Below are positions 836-52,200 of a DNA stretch of 64,000 nucleotides, one piece after another. The position numbers were made by a program, and so were the translations under genes. The first letter of the stretch is position 1; each line of letters opens with the position of its first letter. Under the pieces are notes generated by a model. That model was not told the origin of the DNA, did not search any database, and was given only the letters and a program-made list of their open reading frames with translations. The stretch is from an uncultured Chlorobiota bacterium (lineage in GTDB: Bacteria; Bacteroidota; Ignavibacteria; UBA10030; UBA6906), in contig CAADGV010000004.1 in assembly GCA_900696645.1 (NCBI GenBank), forward strand, positions 97,140 to 161,139, in the 5' to 3' direction.

Positions 836-2155
836 TCAGAATGAAAGACTCGTGTCGAAATTCTCCAACCCCTTCACAATCTCTTCGAGAAACATCCCTC
901 CGAGCGCCCCATCAACGATACGATGGTCGAAGGATAGCGTGAAGAACGCCATCGAGCGAATCGCAATCATATCATCAACAACCATCACACGTTTCTTGAT
1001 GGCGCCTGTTCCGAGAATCGCCACTTGCGGCTGGCTGATGATCGGTGTGCCGATGAGTGTTCCGAACACTCCGAAGTTGGAGATTGTGAATGTGCCGCCT
1101 TGAATATCGTCGGGTGTCAGCTTCTTGTTGCGAGTGCGTGTAGCAAGATCGTTGACGGCGCGGGCAAAACCGAGAAAATTCTTCTCTTCGGCATTCTTGA
1201 TGACGGGAACGATCAGTCCGTTCTCAGCCGCAACAGCGAGGCCGAGATTGATGAAGTTCTTCTTGATAATCTTATCCCCTTCAATCGACGTGTTGACGAG
1301 AGGATACTTTTTCAATGCATTCACTACCGCCTGCACAATGTACGGAGTGTATGTGAGCTTGAAGCCTTCCTTTGTCTCAAATGAGGCCGCGTGGGCTGCA
1401 CGATGTTTCACAACCTCCGTCATATCCACTTCGTGAATGGCAGCGACATGCGGAGAGGTATGCACACTCTTGACCATGTGCTCCGCCATTTTCTGCAGAA
1501 CATTACTCATCTGAATAATGTCGTGTTGCGGAGCCGGATACTTAGCCCGCAGTTCAGGCACATCAACTGTCTTGCCTGCAATCGCCATTGACGGTGCGGT
1601 GGGCGCTGTCTTTGCAGAAGTGGGCTTCGGCGTTGTGAGCGCGCCGCTTTTTTTTGCATTAACGTAAGTAAGAATATCTTTCTTTGAGACACGTCCTCCG
1701 TCGCCCGTACCCGGGATCAACTCCAATTCCTGCATCGCAATTCCTTCTTCACGCGCAATGTTCAACACGAGCGGAGAATAAAATCTTCCCGATGCTGGCG
1801 CTGACAGGGTCTGAGCGGCTGGTGCAGCAGCAACTGCAGGCGCGGGTGTTGACGCAACAGCTTGTGGTGCAGGAGCAGCGGGCTTCGGTTCTTCCGTAAC
1901 AGCAACCGCTCCGCCTTCTGTATCAAGAAACGCAATCACCGTTCTCACCGGAACTGTGGTTTGTTCCTGGACAACGATTTCCGTAAGCGTTCCTGATGCC
2001 GGCGAGGGAATTTCGGAATCCACTTTGTCGGTGGAGATTTCCAAAATCGTCTCGTCTTTCTTCACTTTGTCGCCGACCTTCTTGTGCCATTTCACAATGG
2101 TACCTTCGGCGATGCTCTCGCCCATCTGGGGCATGACGACTTCTACACGTGCCAT
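836..2155 (-). CDS. 2-oxoacid dehydrogenase E2 component (dihydrolipoamide acyltransferase)
   Basis: E2 core of a pyruvate or branched-chain 2-oxoacid dehydrogenase complex; it transfers the acyl group from lipoamide to CoA in the cytoplasm. The 439 residues contain one N-terminal lipoyl domain (about 1-78) with lipoyl-lysine K44 in ISTDKVDSE, an Ala/Pro-rich linker, a peripheral-subunit-binding domain (about 128-166, ending GDGGRVSKKDIL), a second linker and the catalytic acyltransferase domain (about 215-439). The active-site motif is SFDHRIVDG, with H411 and D415. An AGGAAG ribosome site lies 6 nt before the ATG. The first 13 codons occur a second time upstream at 3207-3247, beyond the TIR gene. 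Whether the substrate is pyruvate or branched-chain acids cannot be decided from sequence. Confidence 0.93.
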   Translation of the reverse strand: MARVEVVMPQMGESIAEGTIVKWHKKVGDKVKKDETILEISTDKVDSEIPSPASGTLTEIVVQEQTTVPVRTVIAFLDTEGGAVAVTEEPKPAAPAPQAVASTPAPAVAAAPAAQTLSAPASGRFYSPLVLNIAREEGIAMQELELIPGTGDGGRVSKKDILTYVNAKKSGALTTPKPTSAKTAPTAPSMAIAGKTVDVPELRAKYPAPQHDIIQMSNVLQKMAEHMVKSVHTSPHVAAIHEVDMTEVVKHRAAHAASFETKEGFKLTYTPYIVQAVVNALKKYPLVNTSIEGDKIIKKNFINLGLAVAAENGLIVPVIKNAEEKNFLGFARAVNDLATRTRNKKLTPDDIQGGTFTISNFGVFGTLIGTPIISQPQVAILGTGAIKKRVMVVDDMIAIRSMAFFTLSFDHRIVDGALGGMFLEEIVKGLENFDTSLSF

Positions 2156-2156
2156 A
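2116..2156. repeat. 41-bp direct repeat, copy A (5' end of the E2 gene)
   Basis: These 41 bases match 3207-3247 exactly. The copy covers the E2 start codon through codon 13, plus one base on each side. Just upstream on the minus strand the two copies are still loosely similar (both have an A/G-rich ribosome site), but the identity ends sharply inside codon 14. Confidence 0.95.
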
Positions 2157-2253
2157 GTTACTTCCTTTTATTCTTTTCCTTTTACTACTTGTATCCGATT
2201 CTCTCGTTTCCGCCGCGTGCGGCATATTTCCCTTCCGCCTACGTCGGCACCCT

Positions 2254-3162
2254 TTAGGGTTTCTTGTCGTGGCCCGGCTCTTCTGTCGGAGAGGGATTTA
2301 GCACTTGCGCACCAACCGTAACGGTTACCGCATCAGATGCGCTTCCAGTAGTGTTGCTACAAATAATATTGTAAGTGGCGGTATGAGTTAAGTTTCCAGT
2401 GGAGAAAGATCCGGACAGGGCACGACTGCCAGTCCAACCATTCGATCCACCGTAGCTAGAACAGGAAATGGCATTGCTGGATGACCAGCGAATGGTCGTA
2501 ACTCCATTATAAGGAACATAAGCATTGTCTGCAAAGATTTTGACAGACGGCTTTACACCTTCATCTTGGATAGACATTTTGTGAATAATCCACACCACCA
2601 CGAACACAGTCATACTCGCGAGCACAATAATCGTCAACACAAGTAGAACATTCTTCCAAGAAAATTCTTTTGACTGGCCGGGCAGCAGCCCAACTTCTGG
2701 TACAACAATGCGAGGCGGCTGCTCAGTCCGGAGCGCCATCTTAATCTGGTTGCATATCTCGAAGAGCGCTTTATCCTGTTGCCATTTTTCCATGCTCTCG
2801 AGCGGATTTTGCGGATCATGTGTTGCCTGATAATCAGTTAGCTCGGTTTCATCGAACATGCAATAGGAAATCGGGACCCAAATAATTTTCAGCCCTCGAC
2901 TTTCAGCGGCTTTGAGTAATTGCGGAATCTCTTGGGCAGTGACAAACTCCGACGCAAGAAAATTCTGGCTCACGAGCATCACTGCAATATCGGCTTTGTT
3001 GAGCTCCTTTTCGATTTCCTCTTTCCATTTCGCCCCAACGTGAATCTTAGTATCATCCCACGCGGAGATGAGATTATTGCGCAGAAGCGGCTTCAGCGTC
3101 TTTTGAAGGCGCTCAAGCCATTCCTTGTCTTGATGACAATAGCTGATGAACACATTAGGCAT
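2254..3162 (-). CDS. Membrane-anchored TIR-domain protein with C-terminal Ig-like domain
   Basis: The 302-residue protein begins with a TIR domain (about 1-145): strand A is VFISYCHQD, followed by WDDTKIHVGAKW, AVMLVSQNFLAS and the late segment YQATHDPQNPLESM. E78 in TAQEIPQLL sits where TIR NADases carry their catalytic glutamate (inference from spacing). A single transmembrane helix (about 172-193) follows, then an outside domain (about 200-290) with WSSSNAISC and ASDAVTVTVG, resembling the Ig-like repeats of Patescibacteria surface proteins. TIR should therefore be cytoplasmic and Ig extracytoplasmic. The gene splits a 2-oxoacid dehydrogenase operon and is bracketed by a 41-bp direct repeat. 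Its ribosome site is weak, and a 19-codon reading frame ending 24 nt upstream may couple translation. A role in defence or NAD+ metabolism is inferred only from the family. Confidence 0.85.
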   Translation of the reverse strand: MPNVFISYCHQDKEWLERLQKTLKPLLRNNLISAWDDTKIHVGAKWKEEIEKELNKADIAVMLVSQNFLASEFVTAQEIPQLLKAAESRGLKIIWVPISYCMFDETELTDYQATHDPQNPLESMEKWQQDKALFEICNQIKMALRTEQPPRIVVPEVGLLPGQSKEFSWKNVLLVLTIIVLASMTVFVVVWIIHKMSIQDEGVKPSVKIFADNAYVPYNGVTTIRWSSSNAISCSSYGGSNGWTGSRALSGSFSTGNLTHTATYNIICSNTTGSASDAVTVTVGAQVLNPSPTEEPGHDKKP

Positions 3163-3186
3163 CGCGCACCGTTTGCACTATACGAA

Positions 3187-3246
3187 TCAGTTTTCTCTCT
3201 CGAAGTTCTCGCCCATCTGGGGCATGACGACTTCTACACGTGCCAT
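3187..3246 (-). pseudogene. Relic of the E2 5' end (19 codons), possible leader for the TIR gene
   Basis: An ATG with an AAGGA ribosome site 8 nt upstream opens a frame identical to E2 codons 1-13 (MARVEVVMPQMGE), then continues NFEREN and stops at TGA. It lies 24 nt before the TIR start. It is best read as what remained of E2 when the TIR gene arrived. It may still be translated and act as a leader. Confidence 0.8.
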
Positions 3247-3247
3247 A
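3207..3247. repeat. 41-bp direct repeat, copy B
   Basis: Perfect match to 2116-2156 in the same orientation. The repeats bound a segment of about 1.09 kb that contains only the TIR gene and its flanks. Confidence 0.95.
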
Positions 3248-3280
3248 ATAACATTCCTTGATTCACATGATTTTTCAACA

Positions 3281-3339
3281 CGAAGACGCAAAGGCACACA
3301 AAGGTTCACGAAGGGAAACTTCGAGTCTTAGCGTCTTCG
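3281..3339. repeat. Intergenic inverted repeat (9-bp stem)
   Basis: CGAAGACGC at 3281-3289 pairs with GCGTCTTCG at 3331-3339, with a purine-rich inner loop. It lies between E1 beta and the E2 relic. Similar wording (cacgaag / cttcgtg) recurs in the longer inverted repeat at 38024-38095. It may be an attenuator, an RNA processing site or a dispersed hairpin element. Confidence 0.6.
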
Positions 3340-3350
3340 CGGTTTTCTTT

Positions 3351-4328
3351 CTAAAAATTTGCCAACTCTCTCAAAACCGTTACTACCTTCTGTGTATTCG
3401 GCAAAACAAAATCCTCCAGCGTCGGCGCAAACGGAACCGGAACATCCAACGCACCCAACCGCTTGATCGGTGCGTCGAGATATTGGAACACATTATCTGC
3501 AATCAGTGCAGCAACCTCAGCGCCGATTCCACCGGTCACGTTGTCCTCATGAACAATCAACACTTTGCCGGTCGCTTTCACGGCTGCGAAGATTGCCTCC
3601 TTGTCAAGCGGGGCGAGCGTTCGCAAATCCAATACCATCACATCAATACCATCCTCTTTGGCGAGAGTTTCGGCGGCCTCAAGTGATTGATGCACAGTAG
3701 AACCATATGTAATGATGGCAATGTCGCTGCCATTGCGTTTCACATCTGCTTTGCCAATCTCAACGATATGATCGCCTTCGGGAACTTCTCCTTTGATGCG
3801 GCGGTAGAGATACTTCGACTCCAGATAAAGCACGGGATTATTGTCCCGCACGGCCGCCTTCATCAGTCCTTTTGCATCAGCAGGAGTTGACGGCGCAACG
3901 ATTTTCAGTCCGGGGAAATGATGAAACCACGCCTCCGTGCTTGACGAATGATACGGCCCGCCGCGTATGTAACCGCCGTTCGGCAGACGAATCACCATCG
4001 GTGCAGGAAGATTCCAGCGATAGTGAATCTTCGCGCAGTTGGTGATAATTTGATTGAAGCCGCACGAGACGAAATCTGCAAATTGAATCTCAACAATCGG
4101 TCGCATGCCAACAACTGCCGCACCCGCCGCAGCGCCGATGATTGCGGCCTCCGAAAGAACGGAATCAATCACCCGTTCTTCGCCAAAATGCTTTTGAAAT
4201 CCCTTCGTTGCCTTGAACGCGCCGCCGTAGGCCCCAATGTCCTCGCCAATCAGGAAGACGGACTCGTCACGTTCCATCTCCTCCCACATGCCTCTGGAGA
4301 GGGCTTCGATGTAGGTCAGGGTTGGCAT
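3351..4328 (-). CDS. pdhB: 2-oxoacid dehydrogenase E1 component, beta subunit
   Basis: Beta subunit of the thiamine-diphosphate E1 heterotetramer that decarboxylates the 2-oxoacid and reductively acylates the lipoyl group of E2. It shows the transketolase-like pyrimidine domain (LIGEDIGAYGGAFKAT, SEAAIIGAAAGAAVVGMRP, EIQFADFV, GGYIRGGPYHSSS) and the C-terminal domain (IAIITYGSTVHQSLEAA, DLRTLAPLDKEAI, LIVHEDNVTGGIGAE). The start chosen is the ATG at 4328 (325 residues), the usual family start at MPTLTYIEAL. The frame stays open upstream to 4430, but that stretch overlaps the toxin gene. Only one base separates the toxin stop from this ATG, so translation is probably coupled. Pyruvate as substrate is likely but unproven. 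Confidence 0.92.
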   Translation of the reverse strand: MPTLTYIEALSRGMWEEMERDESVFLIGEDIGAYGGAFKATKGFQKHFGEERVIDSVLSEAAIIGAAAGAAVVGMRPIVEIQFADFVSCGFNQIITNCAKIHYRWNLPAPMVIRLPNGGYIRGGPYHSSSTEAWFHHFPGLKIVAPSTPADAKGLMKAAVRDNNPVLYLESKYLYRRIKGEVPEGDHIVEIGKADVKRNGSDIAIITYGSTVHQSLEAAETLAKEDGIDVMVLDLRTLAPLDKEAIFAAVKATGKVLIVHEDNVTGGIGAEVAALIADNVFQYLDAPIKRLGALDVPVPFAPTLEDFVLPNTQKVVTVLRELANF

Positions 4329-4329
4329 C

Positions 4330-4656
4330 TCATTTAATGATTGCTCTGAAAATGCTTCTGAACTTGCGAAGTTCCGATTTCGATAGTCTTCCAAGTGAGG
4401 TAATAACCGTGCTTTGTCGAAGCGTTGCAATCCGATCCACCTTCACGACTGATGGGACACGAAGTCCATTCGCCCGAGTTGGCTTAAGTATGAATTCGTT
4501 CTCGGATAACCTCGTTTCGATCACTGAACTCACCGCGCATACAATCACATCGTGATAACGATCCTGTGTGAGTCCAACGACAACAGCAGGACGTACTTTC
4601 CGCACCGGCACATCCGCGAACGGAAACGGGACTATGATGATGTCACCAGTCTTCAA
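4330..4656 (-). CDS. MazF/PemK-family toxin (type II endoribonuclease)
   Basis: 108 residues with the family start GDIIIVPFPFADVPVRKVRP, the conserved RPAVVVG segment, and the later VKVDRIATLRQS strand of the CcdB/MazF barrel. Known members cleave mRNA at short motifs and are neutralised by the partner encoded just before them. The start overlaps the stop of the upstream antitoxin gene by 4 nt (ATGA), as in typical modules. The stop lies one base before the E1 beta start, so the toxin gene is embedded in, and probably read with, the dehydrogenase operon. No disrupted core residue was noticed. Confidence 0.85.
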   Translation of the reverse strand: MKTGDIIIVPFPFADVPVRKVRPAVVVGLTQDRYHDVIVCAVSSVIETRLSENEFILKPTRANGLRVPSVVKVDRIATLRQSTVITSLGRLSKSELRKFRSIFRAIIK

Positions 4657-4865
4657 GACTTTCTTGCCAAAAGGTCCTGATAAATGTCCTCGCGTTCATC
4701 ATTCCAGAAAGAGAATGCCTCACTCTGGGATGTGAACGTCCGCATATCCTCATCGTCCTCGATTTCTTCCAAGAATGTGATGACGACTCTGTACTTCTTT
4801 TTCCCGGGAAGTTTTTCGAGTAAGCGAACGCGTTCGCCATCATAAATTCCTCTTACCGAAAGCAT
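4653..4865 (-). CDS. Putative antitoxin of the MazF-like module
   Basis: A 70-residue acidic protein starting MLSVRGIYDGERVRLLE, with an N-terminal beta-hairpin-like segment and an acidic tail (EEIEDDEDM). It resembles small antitoxins paired with PemK toxins. The frame is open from 4898, but the ATG at 4865 is preceded by a strong AAAGGAGG ribosome site at 7-nt spacing, which decides the start. It overlaps the toxin gene by 4 nt. The assignment rests mainly on position and size; no classic AbrB or RHH motif was recognised. Confidence 0.7.
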   Translation of the reverse strand: MLSVRGIYDGERVRLLEKLPGKKKYRVVITFLEEIEDDEDMRTFTSQSEAFSFWNDEREDIYQDLLARKS

Positions 4866-5070
4866 GATCGCCTCCTTTACTATATTCGATTTTGCCATTT
4901 CCTAATTATCCCCCGCATCTGGCTCTTTGTTAGCCTTCTCTCACTGCCCATTTCAACTTGACGCTCAAGATTGGGATAGCCGGATGCATGTAAGTGTCAG
5001 AATTCAGCGTCAGTATCCAATTACGAAATTTGATTCTTCTGCACTGAAAAGCAACACTCACATTGCCACA

Positions 5071-47186: not shown

Positions 47187-48950
47187 ATGCGTACATGCTC
47201 CTTTGCTTTGACGACTCTTCTTCTTGTCGTTTGTCTGTCTGCGTACAGTCAAACAACATTCACGGATGTGACCACAACTGCGGGAACCGGCTTGGGGGAT
47301 GGCACTGCACGCGGATTCAGTTGGGTGGATTTTGACAATGACGGCCTGCTCGACCTGTTCATCCCGACAGCGGGAAACGTTCCGAACAAAGTCTACAAAA
47401 ACAACGGCGACGGCACGTTCTCGGAAATCGCCGCCGCTCTCGGTCTGAACGATATGGTAAACACCATCACCTGTTCGTGGGCTGATTTTGATAATGACGG
47501 CGACCTTGATTTGATCACAACCGCAACGGCAGCGGCAACCGTATTATGGCGGAACAATTTCTTTCCCGGCGGGGACACTTCATTCACCAACATTACGGCA
47601 AGTTCCGGTATTGCAATGACCGGGGCACAAATGCCTGCATGGACTGATTACAACTTGGATGGATTTCTTGATGTGTATTCTTCCATCTCAAACTCCTCGG
47701 TCTCATCAGATGCGTTGTATCGGAACAACGGCAACGCCACATTCACGAATATGGCCGACAGCGCAGGAGTCAATCACCAGGTTTCCGGAATCCTCGAGCA
47801 GGCAGTCCATTGGGGAGATTACAATAAGGACGGCTACCCCGATTTGTTCATCGGAAACCTCCAGACGGGCGGACCCAGCTTCTTTCATCATAACAATGGC
47901 GACGGCACATTCACGGAAATTGCTGCTTCGCTCGGTTTTCAAGGCGCGGCACGGGGCTCGCAGTGGGTTGATTACAATAATGATGGCTTGTGGGATTATT
48001 CAGTTGCAGGATATGCGGGCGGCACGAATGCAGTTCCCGTTAAACTGTACCGCAACAACGGCAACGGAACATTCACGGATGTTGCCGCGCAAGCCGGCAT
48101 TACAGACGCAGTCATCTCCTGGGGAGTGACATGGGCCGATTTCAATAATGACGGGTATGAAGATTTCTTTGTTGCCGTATCGGGTCAAAGTACATCGTGC
48201 CTCCTTTACAAGAACAACGGCGACGGCACGTTCACGAATGTTACATCGCAAGCCGGACTTCCTGCATTTGCCCAACTCAGCGCAGCGTGGGGCGATTATG
48301 ATAATGACGGCGATATGGACTTGTACACATCGGGTGCAGCCTCGGCGGGCAACCATCTCTTCAGAAATAATTCAGACACGACAAACAAATGGCTCAAGGT
48401 GAATCTCGTCGGATCCATCGCCAACAGGTTTGGCGTTGGAGCCCGGATTGAAGTGTATGCCGGCTCGCTTCGTATGATGCGTGAAGTGAACACGGCAATC
48501 GGATATCGTTCACAGAATATGTTGACAGCCCACTTCGGACTTGCAGGCAATACGCTCGTTGATTCCATCGTTGTACGATGGCCGAACCGGCAACAAACCG
48601 GAACTGTTCTGCGAAATGTCGGTGCCAATCAAGTCCTTGCCCTGACAGAAATCCCCGGCCAGTATGTTGAAGAACTGAACAGCCCGGGAACGTGGCGGCT
48701 TGAACAAAATTATCCCAATCCCTTCAATCCCGCAACGGTAATCACGTTTACTGTGCCTGTAGCGGGCAGTGTTCGATTGAGTGTTTTCGACATTCTTGGA
48801 AAAGAAGTGGCGGTATTGGTTCATGAAACGAGGGCAGCAGGAACCTATACAGTTTCATGGAACGCGGAACGAATCGGATCAGGCGTGTATTTCTACCGAT
48901 TGGAGGCTGACGGAATAAGGCTTGCAAGAAAAATGCAATTGCTGAAATAA
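47187..48950 (+). CDS. Secreted FG-GAP/VCBS repeat protein with ASPIC/UnbV domain and sorting domain
   Basis: 587 residues with signal peptide (FALTTLLLVVCLSAYSQ). At least seven FG-GAP repeats carry calcium-loop motifs such as DFDNDGLLDLF, DFDNDGDLDLI, DYNKDGYPDLF and DYDNDGDMDLY, predicting an integrin-alpha-like propeller. An ASPIC/UnbV domain follows (GVGARIEVYAGS, TAHFGLAG, DSIVVRWPNRQQ), then the sorting domain with EQNYPNPFNPATVITF, ending LARKMQLLK. GGAGG lies 7 nt before the ATG. It is probably a calcium-stabilised adhesion or matrix protein at the cell surface. It is an independent transcription unit with a REP-like hairpin immediately after its stop. Confidence 0.92.
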   Translation: MRTCSFALTTLLLVVCLSAYSQTTFTDVTTTAGTGLGDGTARGFSWVDFDNDGLLDLFIPTAGNVPNKVYKNNGDGTFSEIAAALGLNDMVNTITCSWADFDNDGDLDLITTATAAATVLWRNNFFPGGDTSFTNITASSGIAMTGAQMPAWTDYNLDGFLDVYSSISNSSVSSDALYRNNGNATFTNMADSAGVNHQVSGILEQAVHWGDYNKDGYPDLFIGNLQTGGPSFFHHNNGDGTFTEIAASLGFQGAARGSQWVDYNNDGLWDYSVAGYAGGTNAVPVKLYRNNGNGTFTDVAAQAGITDAVISWGVTWADFNNDGYEDFFVAVSGQSTSCLLYKNNGDGTFTNVTSQAGLPAFAQLSAAWGDYDNDGDMDLYTSGAASAGNHLFRNNSDTTNKWLKVNLVGSIANRFGVGARIEVYAGSLRMMREVNTAIGYRSQNMLTAHFGLAGNTLVDSIVVRWPNRQQTGTVLRNVGANQVLALTEIPGQYVEELNSPGTWRLEQNYPNPFNPATVITFTVPVAGSVRLSVFDILGKEVAVLVHETRAAGTYTVSWNAERIGSGVYFYRLEADGIRLARKMQLLK

Positions 48951-48953
48951 GAA

Positions 48954-48975
48954 GTTGACATTGCAGTCTGCAATG
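48954..48975 (+). repeat. REP-like mini-hairpin (GTTG type)
   Basis: GTTG, one A, then CATTGCA-GTC-TGCAATG: a perfect 7-bp stem with a 3-nt loop, starting 4 nt after the stop at 48950. The layout matches the elements at 9735 and 16362-16418 although the stem sequence differs. The remaining 48976-49212 holds no visible gene. Confidence 0.55.
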
Positions 48976-49212
48976 TGCATATTCATGTAGTATCCTCTGC
49001 CTCTATCGGATAGCCGCGTAGTCGCCTTGGGGACATCGGTCTGGTTTCTCCACTCGGGTCATTATCACAACATCCTTGAGTATTCCATCAGCGTGGAACT
49101 TTGCGCAACAGAAGAGCAACGTGTGCAACCCACACTTTGCCTGCTACGGAATCATCATTTCATCTTCACTCTCACAATCACCCTAACCATTCACCAAATC
49201 TAAGGAGGCTTC

Positions 49213-52200
49213 ATGTCTCGTAGGTTGCTATTTTCTTGGTGCATCGTTCTCAGCTTTGTTGTACTGGGAACATCGTTCGCGCAGGATTATTCCGCAATGT
49301 GGAATAATGCAAAGCGAGCGAAACTCGGTCTTGATGCATCACCAGCCCGTCCGATTCAGTCCGAGGGACAGGCAACAATGAACCCGCTCAGTCCGCCGAA
49401 CACGCCGGACATCCAGGTGTTCAATCCATCGAACTTCTGGCAGAGCGAAAATTCCATCGGCATTAACTACTCGAATCCGAACCAGTTGATGGTTTCGACC
49501 AATGGCCAGATTCCGGGCTCGAATCCGGTTGTTCAACAGCCGTGGGCGTTCAGTACCGATGGCGGTGTAACATGGCCTGCATCAATGCAGAGCGAGAGCA
49601 TACCGCCGGGCATTGTCGATTGTTTCGGCGATCCGGTCGCATACTTCGACGTAAGTGGCAGGGCATATTACTCCACTCTCGGGTCACCCAGCGGAATCTA
49701 TTTCGTGACCACGACAAACTTCGGCGCCACTTGGAGCGCCCGCTCGAATGCTGACAACCTTAACAGCACCGGCGACGACAAGCAACATGCGACGGCAGAT
49801 TTCTCCGGCACATTCCCGAACAACGTGTATACCGCGTGGACGGATTTCAACGTGACCGGTACGCCTATCCAATTTGCGCGTTCAACTAATCAGGGTACGT
49901 CATGGTTACCGCGAGTTGCGCTTCCTATTGGCTCGAACCGCGGACAGGGCGTACATATTGCGACCGGCCCGAATGGTGAAGTGTATGTAATGTGGGCTCA
50001 CTACACAACCGGCACCGCCGAAGTCGGTATCGGCTGGGCAAAATCCACCGATGGCGGCGCAACGTTCACGACGCCCGCAATCGCCTTCCCGATTAATGGC
50101 GTGAGAATTTCGAACGGCGGTATCGCTGCAATCAATAACGTGCGTACAGCAAGCTTCCCGTATCATGATGTCGATCGCTCCAACGGCGCCCGTCGCGGAT
50201 GGGTGTATGTTGTTGTGCCGGAACTTGATGTTGCAAACACCGGGCAGGCGGACATCTATTTCTACCGCTCAACCAATGGCGGAACAACATGGAGTTCGCG
50301 CATGAAGGTCAACGGACCCGACGTGCAGGCGGGCAAATGGCAATTCATGCCATCCATTGCAGTTGACCCGACAACAGGCGGCATTTCCATCAGCTACTAC
50401 AGCATGGATTCCACGGGCAGCAATTTTATGACAAACCGCTATATGGCATACTCAGTCGATGGCGGCGACACGTGGGATAATTTCGTCATCAGTGATGTGC
50501 GTGCCTTGTGGGCACCCCAAGGAACGCCCAGTACAAACACAACGTACAATGGCGACTACTACGAAACTGTTGCAATGAACGGTAAAGCCTGGGCAACATG
50601 GACCGACCGGCGCCTTGGTGCCTCAGGAACATTCAATAGAGCCTATGTCGGCATCGTCACCTACGCCGAGAACTTCGGATGGGTTCGCGGAACTGTATCG
50701 AACCTTAGCGGCGGCACTCCGTTGCAAGGAGTAGCCATTGATTTTGTACAGAACGTTTTGCAGCAAGGAGCAACAACTGCCGCAAACGGCTCATATCTTG
50801 CGGGGGCGCAAGTTGATACTCCAGGAACAACGGCAAACCTGACCCTACGGGGACGCAAGTTCGGGTTTGTTGACACCACAGTCGCTGTAACGCTTACACG
50901 ATTCGACACGTTGACACGCAACTTCTCGATGCGTCCCGCACCGAGCGGAACGCTGAGTGTGCACTCGCGCCACCCCGGCGGAAATCTTCGTTCATACGTG
51001 GAAGTGAAGTTCGGGGCACTTGTTGTTGCAAGCGATTCGACAAACGCAACAACCGGATTGTTCTCGACAACTCTCCCGACGGGAACGTACAGCGTCAAGG
51101 TGGACGCTCCGCCTCCGTACCGTACTCTCAACTTCCCGAGTGTTGCAATAACACAAGGCGCGACAACGAACGTGGACGCCCTTACACGAGCAGTGTTCGA
51201 GTTTACGCCTACGGCGGTTCGCGATACACTCCCCGTTGGCGGCTCCCGAGTCAAGAATTTGACAATTGCGAATACGACACCCGATACCGTACAGTATCGA
51301 ATTACCGACGACAACGCATTGCGCATTCAAACCCGGACAATCGACTACAGCTTGCCGTCAGTGAAACGGAGTATGGAACTGCAGAACACTTCGGTTACGC
51401 CAAAAGGTCAGGCTGATCCGATTTCTCCGGTAACCGATTCTCCCGATGGCCGCGGTGGACCGGATGCTTTCGGATATCAGTGGGTTGATTCCGATGAGCC
51501 GGATGGTCCGGTTTTCGACTGGTTCGATATTTCGACAATCGGCACGCAAATCACGGTAATGACTTCGGGAACATTGGATGATGGTTTTGCGACCATTCCG
51601 TTCCCGGCATCATTCCCTCTGTATGGCAACACGTATTCTTCAATTAACGTCGGCACGAACGGTTTCGTGAACTTCGGAACCGGATCGACATCGCTTTCCA
51701 ACGGAGCCATCCCCTCGGTAGCCGCACCCAACAACGCGATCTACGGCTTCTGGGATGACCTTGATTTCCGCACGAGCGGTAAGCTCCTGTACTATCATGA
51801 TGTCGCAACCGGTCGCTTCATAGTTCAATATGATAAGGCACCACGGTTTGGCTCAGCCTCTGTTGATACGCTGACATTCCAGATTATCATGAAGCCGAGC
51901 GGCGAAGTATTGATTCAATTCCTCCGCGTCGTCGGAACTGTACTAAATTCAGGAACAATCGGCGTCGAGAATTCATCAGGAACCGTTGCGCTGCAGGTTG
52001 TCAACAACGCAGCGTATGTGCACAACAATCTGGCGATTCGTATTTACCTGCCTGATGCTCCCTGGATTAGTGAGAACCCGTCATTTGGCGCTATTCCACC
52101 GAACAGTAACCAGATAATTCAATGTGCGTTCAATGCGACAGGGCTTCTTGCAGGAACGCTCTATAACGCGAACATTTTTGTCGAGGCAACACATCCCGAC

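What the first reader, a model, noticed from the sequence alone, without database searches (positions are those of the whole stretch)
2116..3247. TIR gene insertion bracketed by a 41-bp duplication that rebuilds the interrupted E2 gene
The segment between E1 beta and E2 carries a TIR-domain gene, and its two boundaries are identical 41-bp direct repeats covering E2 codons 1-13. The upstream copy now reads into NFEREN and stops; the downstream copy starts the intact E2. Such damage-free entry into an essential operon is how integrating elements that duplicate a gene end behave, but no integrase, transposase or second cargo gene is present in the 1.1 kb. It may be a minimal mobile defence cassette, a product of recombination, or a designed link placing an NAD-acting TIR protein under dehydrogenase-operon control. 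The 19-codon relic may also serve as a translational leader for the TIR gene.
Basis: partly seen in the sequence, partly recalled or inferred. Interest (0 to 1): 0.85.

Follow-up and report, generated by a model that had tools for sequence, protein, structure and literature searches.

The report
TIR gene bracketed by E2 starts
In two related bacteria a single immune-type (TIR) gene lies between two genes of a central metabolic enzyme, bracketed by two copies of the start of the next gene, and its silent DNA positions differ less between the two species than those of the genes around it, so it likely moved as a small unit that would use the copied gene start and the cell's own recombination to enter without breaking the enzyme gene.

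Summary
Window 2116-2156 and 3207-3247 are identical 41-bp repeats covering E2 codons 1-13, and they bracket one TIR gene. It is no assembly artefact: a second species of the genus (G001) has the same TIR gene (74% identical protein) at the same junction, with its own E2-start copy (42 of 45 nt). Of 30 E1beta-E2 junctions examined, both carriers included, 26 are 177 nt or shorter. At fourfold-degenerate (silent) sites TIR differs between the two species at 25 of 96, six surrounding operon genes at 561 of 1126, and 87 genes elsewhere at 4582 of 13213. A third species indicates that the two operon versions split long before the species did; the TIR unit did not. In the window genome both repeat copies share silent changes seen in neither relative. 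So the unit was most likely put into, or kept in, a different operon version by host recombination at the repeats. No recombinase, phage or close plasmid relative was found. Excision, transfer and TIR function are untested; a leader role of the relic has no support beyond its arrangement. New variant of a known kind: a recombinase-less unit that duplicates a gene's 5' end.

The parts
2116..2156 (-). downstream repeat copy, start of the working E2 gene
   Evidence: 41/41 identical to 3207-3247
3207..3247 (-). upstream repeat copy (E2-start relic)
   Evidence: equivalent copy in G001, 42/45 to its own E2
3187..3246 (-). relic ORF, 19 codons plus TGA; same frame as the TIR gene, with a second in-frame stop (TAG) before the TIR start
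   Evidence: 19 codons and both stops also in G001
3163..3201 (-). 39-nt linker after the E2 codon 15 equivalent, up to the TIR start
   Evidence: 5 of 39 differences from G001
2254..3162 (-). TIR gene: TIR domain, one predicted long helix (169-197, read as membrane-spanning), low-confidence C-terminal part
2157..2253 (-). new upstream region of E2 (IG2), part of the unit; one match in its own genome, 80% identical in G001
836..2155 (-). E2, dihydrolipoyl acyltransferase
3351..4322 (-). E1 beta
3248..3350 (-). E1beta-relic spacer (IG1): hairpin-forming, contains dispersed repeat sequence, not alignable with G001; only a weak score (z 3.3) with G002

Best explanation
A 1,091-bp unit (E2-start copy, linker, TIR gene, new E2 upstream region) sits between E1beta and E2 in the window's genome, and its 1,084-bp counterpart at the same place in a second species, and it most likely got onto at least one of the two operon versions by the cell's own recombination inside the copied E2 start, since no recombinase gene was found in it. 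Shown: the same unit, with the same internal joint, at the same site in both species; at silent sites the unit is much less diverged than the operon genes on both sides; in the window genome both repeat copies carry the same local sequence. Inferred: the joint between E2 codon 15 and the linker arose once (one illegitimate join); later the two copies of the E2 start served as short homology arms, either inserting the unit into another E2 allele or letting a foreign operon version replace both flanks while the unit stayed. Either way E2 keeps a complete 5' end. Predicted: recombination between the repeats would also excise the unit and leave a clean E1beta-E2 junction. The TIR protein is predicted to be membrane-anchored with an NAD-cleaving-type TIR domain inside the cell; what triggers it is unknown.
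For: Same unit in G001, parts in the same order. Fourfold-site difference G000-G001: TIR 25/96 (0.26); six operon genes lipA-E3 561/1126 (0.50); 87 genes outside the surrounding 21-kb block 4582/13213 (0.35); TIR against operon p=6e-6. dS is 0.42 for TIR against 1.06-1.49 for E2, E1beta, E1alpha and the fused E1. Of 90 genes with at least 60 sites E2 ranks 90th and TIR 10th. The operon's excess looks like an old split and not one fast lineage: amino-acid differences G000-G001 divided by the mean distance to G002 are 0.11-0.34 for seven genes beyond lipA, but 0.52 (lipA), 0.79 (E2), 0.47 (E1beta), 0.80 (E1alpha), with similar distances from both to G002. Silent divergence is high again next to the unit: E2 codons 16-60 13/19, E1beta last 60 codons 12/26. 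Relic and E2 of G000 share third bases at codons 3, 7 and 9 that G001 and G002 lack. No recombinase match in the unit; no phage match; no relative confirmed in viral contigs; 38 plasmid records match, all under 60% identity. One ComEC-type competence gene in each genome.
Against: Only two genomes carry the unit, so direction and number of events cannot be read. At the protein level TIR is more diverged than its neighbours (74% against 86-94% identity; dN 0.148 against 0.034-0.083); only silent sites make it young. It has 96 usable sites, its middle part is at 6 of 13, and against the 87 outside genes the difference is not significant (p=0.08). The last 30 codons of E1beta are at 4 of 12, so the edge on that side is not sharp by this measure. 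A 41-45 bp repeat is short for homologous recombination. In G001 relic and E2 differ at 3 of 45 sites, hardly fewer than between species (4), so sequence sharing is clear in G000 only. No empty site within either species and no excised form could be sought. Which species had its operon replaced is unknown.
Confidence: 0.5

Rival explanations
1. One ancestral insertion, inherited vertically and never moved; local gene conversion kept relic and E2 alike in G000, and the low silent divergence of TIR is only rate variation, or the operon around it was exchanged piecewise.
For: TIR divergence (0.26) is not significantly below the genes outside the block (0.35, p=0.08); the joint is the same in both species.
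Against: The operon versions on both sides look far older than the unit; keeping the unit through replacement of both flanks already needs breakpoints near the unit's edges.
Confidence: 0.27
2. A non-autonomous site-specific element: an integrase encoded elsewhere recognises the E2 start and moves the unit, as in islands that integrate in dusA and supply its 5' end.
For: Bracketing by a gene's 5' end and a replaced 5' region are what dusA islands do (PMC4482086); 6 and 4 tyrosine-recombinase matches exist in G000 and G001.
Against: No larger element bracketed by E2 starts was seen: among 98 genomes of the order the only same-contig motif pairs are G000 and G001 and ten pairs 333-387 bp apart (38 of the 98 had no motif match and are uninformative). 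The repeats are longer than the 19-28 bp sites reported for dus islands.
Confidence: 0.13
3. The relic is kept by selection as a translational leader: ribosomes start at the old E2 start site, stop, and restart at the TIR gene 27 nt after the relic's last sense codon, tying TIR to dehydrogenase expression.
For: 19-codon length, frame and both stops are the same in two species.
Against: No RNA structure signal. Relic codons 14-19 differ in four of six codons, all amino-acid-changing. Shared third-base states in G000 point to recombination and not to selection on the peptide.
Confidence: 0.07
4. The relic is the leftover of a tandem lipoyl-domain duplication in E2, split by the TIR gene.
For: Ten genomes of the order have two E2 motif copies 333-387 bp apart, all multiples of three, as in-frame double lipoyl domains would give (only G006 was seen as one open frame).
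Against: The pieces of G002, G009, G011 and G014 examined show one motif copy each; the copies here are 1,091 and 1,084 bp apart, not multiples of three, and only 41-45 bp is duplicated.
Confidence: 0.03

Closest known systems
dusA-associated genomic islands (PMC4482086; passages and section 15 read)
   Same: Insertion in the 5' end of a coding gene; direct repeats there; the gene gets a new 5' end and is restored on excision
   Different: Those carry an integrase and varied cargo, with 19-28 bp sites; here one gene, no integrase, 41-45 bp
E. coli H47 genomic island (PMC5426353; abstract and introduction read)
   Same: Flanked by direct repeats, no recombinase of its own; excision reported by PCR, RecA-independent
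   Different: 13 kb, extensive imperfect repeats, microcin genes; excision untested here
Homology-facilitated illegitimate recombination (PMC3240628: start of abstract in the search listing; PMC5361080: passages)
   Same: One homologous anchor plus one illegitimate join can add a gene and leave a gene fragment
   Different: Explains how the joint arose once, not why the unit is on two operon versions
Cis-mobilizable elements, att-flanked and recombinase-less (definition recalled; only search listing)
   Same: Cargo between direct repeats without its own recombination module
   Different: They derive from integrative elements whose integrase acts on them (recalled); none found here

Membership tests
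Integrase-driven genomic island in a gene's 5' end (dusA type) | direct repeats inside the 5' end of the target gene | tested here: met
Integrase-driven genomic island in a gene's 5' end (dusA type) | encodes an integrase | tested here: not met
   TIR ORF and five other overlapping ORFs of 60 aa or more have no integrase match in Pfam or PHROGs
Recombinase-less island moved by host functions (H47 type) | flanking direct repeats and no recombinase gene | tested here: met
Recombinase-less island moved by host functions (H47 type) | excised circle and rejoined junction detected | not testable with these tools
   needs PCR or reads
Recombinase-less island moved by host functions (H47 type) | history separate from its immediate surroundings | tested here: met
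   silent sites against operon p=6e-6; two genomes only, and not significant against the wider contig (p=0.08)
TIR NADase defence proteins | TIR domain with a glutamate at the catalytic position | tested here: met
   TIR_2 hit; Glu78 invariant in all 37 aligned sequences (37 of 49 hits) and paired with a Glu of 7uxr in a weak alignment (E 0.002); that this Glu is catalytic is recalled; top fold matches are plant-receptor, SPARTA and SARM1 TIRs
TIR NADase defence proteins | NAD cleavage or protection against phage | not testable with these tools
   needs an assay
Thoeris | ThsA partner gene beside a ThsB TIR gene | tested here: inconclusive
   a PADLOC ThsB profile matches (E 2.3e-19) but only over profile positions 1-143 of 319, the TIR part; none of the six other operon proteins scanned has a ThsA-like Pfam domain; the rest of the genome was not searched
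Integron cassette | attC site next to the gene | not tested
   no tool call made

The most novel reading that the evidence does not exclude
A self-guiding gene cassette without any enzyme of its own: by carrying a copy of the start of an essential gene at its edge, a single TIR gene can be inserted by ordinary host recombination into any relative's copy of that gene, restores the gene as it enters, leaves cleanly, and so spreads between species on unrelated operon versions.
Probability: 0.33. Interest if true: 0.8.

Novelty: new variant of a known kind. Interest (0 to 1): 0.62.

Why it matters
How lone defence-type genes with no mobility genes spread between chromosomes is an open question. 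Here a one-gene unit has a copied gene start as its only visible mobility feature, and at silent sites its history is separate from the operon it sits in. If the repeats are what carries it, scanning genomes for genes bracketed by copies of a neighbour's start would reveal a class of mobile genes that searches for integrases and transposases miss.

Tried and rejected
Artefact of assembly: rejected, because the same arrangement with diverged sequence exists in G001. TIR genes elsewhere bracketed the same way: 17 TIR loci besides G000 and G001 (18 entries, as L003 and L041 are one gene) were searched for exact repeats of 14 nt or more shared by the two sides within 3 kb; several loci held less flank than that. 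The longest was 16 nt; the short ones were not examined further. Gene-start copies at other insertions of the operon: only imperfect pairs of 16-18 nt, 78-88% alike. A wider motif search (294 genomes, 255 with a match) had its match list cut, so it is not used for a count; the same-contig pairs listed were roughly 290-430 bp apart. RNA-level attenuator in the relic: no signal.

Rows dropped: seven of 107 gene pairs had under 40 fourfold sites and are in no group total, and six further genes of the 21-kb block are counted only in the block (1180/2570; TIR against block p=1e-4). The pairs are mechanical ORF matches, and some short ones may not be genes. In one search the fused-E1 row hit a paralogue in G002 and is left out; the same caution applies to that row. 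One flanking gene (C4:95235) has a stop in the G002 piece, set to X, and another (C4:92111) has only 58 columns. Junction lengths cover 30 of the 57 genomes with an E2 match (those given loci); two more pieces, G007 and G019, gave 30 and 20 nt; in G010 and G016 the gene before E2 is the fused E1.

Literature: two searches for TIR genes with pyruvate dehydrogenase or lipoyl operons found 0 papers and 1 irrelevant paper. A search for small integrase-less defence insertions (12 papers, 8 listed) showed one related title, lateral transduction of chromosomal defence genes (PMC12829572, listing only), which is another possible carrier and was not followed up. This does not show that nothing is in print.

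Full report
OBSERVATION. The two 41-bp repeats are present and identical at 2116-2156 and 3207-3247. On the minus strand they run from one base before the E2 start codon through codon 13 and the first base of codon 14. The order on the minus strand is E1beta (4322-3351), a 104-nt spacer, the relic ORF (19 codons), the TIR gene (3162-2254), a 98-nt spacer and E2 (2155-836), with Pfam domains as expected. Five other ORFs of 60 aa or more that overlap the segment have no Pfam or PHROG match. In the 161-kb contig that holds the window this is the only exact direct repeat of 24 nt or more with copies 100 bp to 8 kb apart.

RELATIVES. Of 60 genomes searched, own included, 9 have a TIR match, and only G001, of the same genus, has a near full-length relative (74% identity). 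A search of 5.8 billion proteins, limited to relatives sharing short exact words, returned 49 hits; two are alike over the whole length, the window's own and the G001 protein, which NCBI lists under a Bacteroidetes MAG. The G001 gene lies at the same E1beta-E2 junction and has its own E2-start copy, MARAEVVMPQMGESIKRED, followed by the same two in-frame stops. There the copies match at 42 of 45 nt, through codon 15; in G000 codons 14 and 15 of the relic each differ from E2 by one base. The third species of the genus, G002, has a 106-nt junction without the gene, and a different TIR gene on another contig (54% over the TIR part). Of 30 junction loci examined, 26 have 177 nt or less between E1beta and E2, two have the TIR unit (1,195 and 1,199 nt) and two hold other small ORFs (609 and 725 nt). 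In 98 genomes of the order a motif search found the E2-start motif in 60; only G000 and G001 have two copies 1,091 and 1,084 bp apart, and ten others have pairs 333-387 bp apart, all multiples of three, which fits double lipoyl domains.

HISTORY OF THE UNIT. I compared 107 ORF pairs between the window's contig and the matching G001 contig. At fourfold-degenerate sites TIR differs at 25 of 96, six genes of the operon (lipA, E2, E1beta, E1alpha, the fused E1 and a lipoamide-dehydrogenase-like gene named by its motif from memory) at 561 of 1126, and 87 genes with at least 40 sites outside the surrounding 21-kb block at 4582 of 13213. Fisher tests give p=6e-6 against the operon, 1e-4 against the whole block (12 genes, 1180/2570) and 0.08 against the 87 outside genes. 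So TIR fits the age of the species split, while its neighbours are among the most diverged genes at silent sites (E2 ranks 90 of 90, E1alpha 89, lipA 88; TIR 10). At the protein level the order is reversed: TIR is 74% identical and its neighbours 86-94%, so TIR evolves fast in sequence but young in silent sites (dN/dS 0.148/0.42 against 0.034-0.083/1.06-1.49). Base composition does not explain the silent-site result (correlation of fourfold GC with divergence -0.02 over 90 genes). G002 as a yardstick suggests that the operon's excess is age: amino-acid differences between G000 and G001 are 0.11-0.34 of their mean distance to G002 for seven flanking genes, but 0.47-0.80 for lipA, E2, E1beta and E1alpha, with similar distances of G000 and G001 to G002; silent sites show the same pattern. 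One species therefore seems to carry an operon version from a more distant relative, yet both versions carry the same younger unit at the same place. The 39-nt linker (5 differences) and the spacer behind TIR (80% identical) belong to the unit; the spacer before the relic does not align between the two species.

THE REPEATS. In G000 the relic and E2 share third-base states at codons 3, 7 and 9 that neither G001 nor G002 has. Two of these (codons 3 and 7) are derived if G002 is the yardstick. Sharing of silent changes between a relic and a gene 1.1 kb away points to recombination between them, or to a recent insertion into that E2 allele. In G001 the pair is less alike (3 differences in 45, against 4 between species), so there the evidence is neutral.

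MECHANISM. The joint after E2 codon 15 is alike in both species, so I infer that it arose once. Its presence on two old operon versions then needs a second step, for which the E2-start copies are the only sequence found at both edges. I commit to host recombination at these copies, at 0.5. The unit has no recombinase match. Both genomes have a ComEC-type competence gene and tyrosine recombinases elsewhere (6 and 4 matches), so a trans-acting integrase is not excluded. No carrier was found: no phage match, no relative confirmed among 140 candidate stretches of viral contigs, and plasmid matches under 60% identity in 38 records. Lateral transduction (PMC12829572, listing only) is a further possible route.

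THE PROTEIN. The TIR domain (residues 1-145) is modelled with high confidence, followed by a helix at 169-197 and a low-confidence C-terminal part (mean pLDDT 72.8). Top fold matches are TIR domains of plant immune receptors, SPARTA and SARM1, over the domain only. Glu78 is invariant in 37 aligned sequences. A PADLOC ThsB profile matches its TIR part (E 2.3e-19). The C-terminal part matches stretches of long frames in two relatives (36% and 39% identity, E 3e-4 to 4e-4), and I read it as Ig-like by eye only. NAD cleavage, defence and control by the dehydrogenase operon are predictions, not results.

KNOWN SYSTEMS. dusA-associated islands show that inserting in a gene's 5' end and supplying a new one is a known strategy, with an integrase (PMC4482086, passages and section 15). 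The H47 island is reported as an island without a recombinase that excises through repeats, independent of RecA (PMC5426353, abstract and introduction). The present unit combines both features in 1.1 kb. I file it as a new variant of a known kind, since movement itself has not been observed.

Noticed in passing
window 4330-4898; L043 1600-2135: A PemK-type toxin gene and a small partner gene lie between E1alpha and E1beta in the window, and relatives of both (67% and 72%) at the same junction in G011 of another genus; no match to either in the G001 and G002 pieces.
   Followed up: partly
L039 7351-8460 and 9558-9998; L059 8987-9589; L032 788-1316: Other small ORFs at junctions of the same operon: a response regulator, a protein with below-cut-off RAMA/DUF2924 matches and a DUF6036 nucleotidyltransferase in G001; an ORF with a below-cut-off nucleotidyltransferase match in G027; a DUF2283 protein in G023. 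The operon's gaps seem to collect such genes.
   Followed up: partly
window 1-21430 approximately (G000 C4:97094-118567): About 21 kb around the operon is more diverged at silent sites between G000 and G001 than most of the contig, as if exchanged as a block. Only the operon part was tested against G002.
   Followed up: partly
window 3248-3350; L039 6230-6344; L040 6862-6967: The spacer after E1beta forms a strong hairpin in all three species (z -3.2, -4.5, -3.4) although the sequences are largely unrelated; in G000 it contains dispersed repeat sequence (15 matches in the genome, itself included).
   Followed up: partly
L070 (G001 C5 about 47700-50000): Many copies of a repeat of about 37-43 bp that look like a CRISPR array.
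   Followed up: no
L041 6522-7373: G002 has a different TIR gene about 160 bp from the end of its contig, possibly because a repeat follows it.
   Followed up: no
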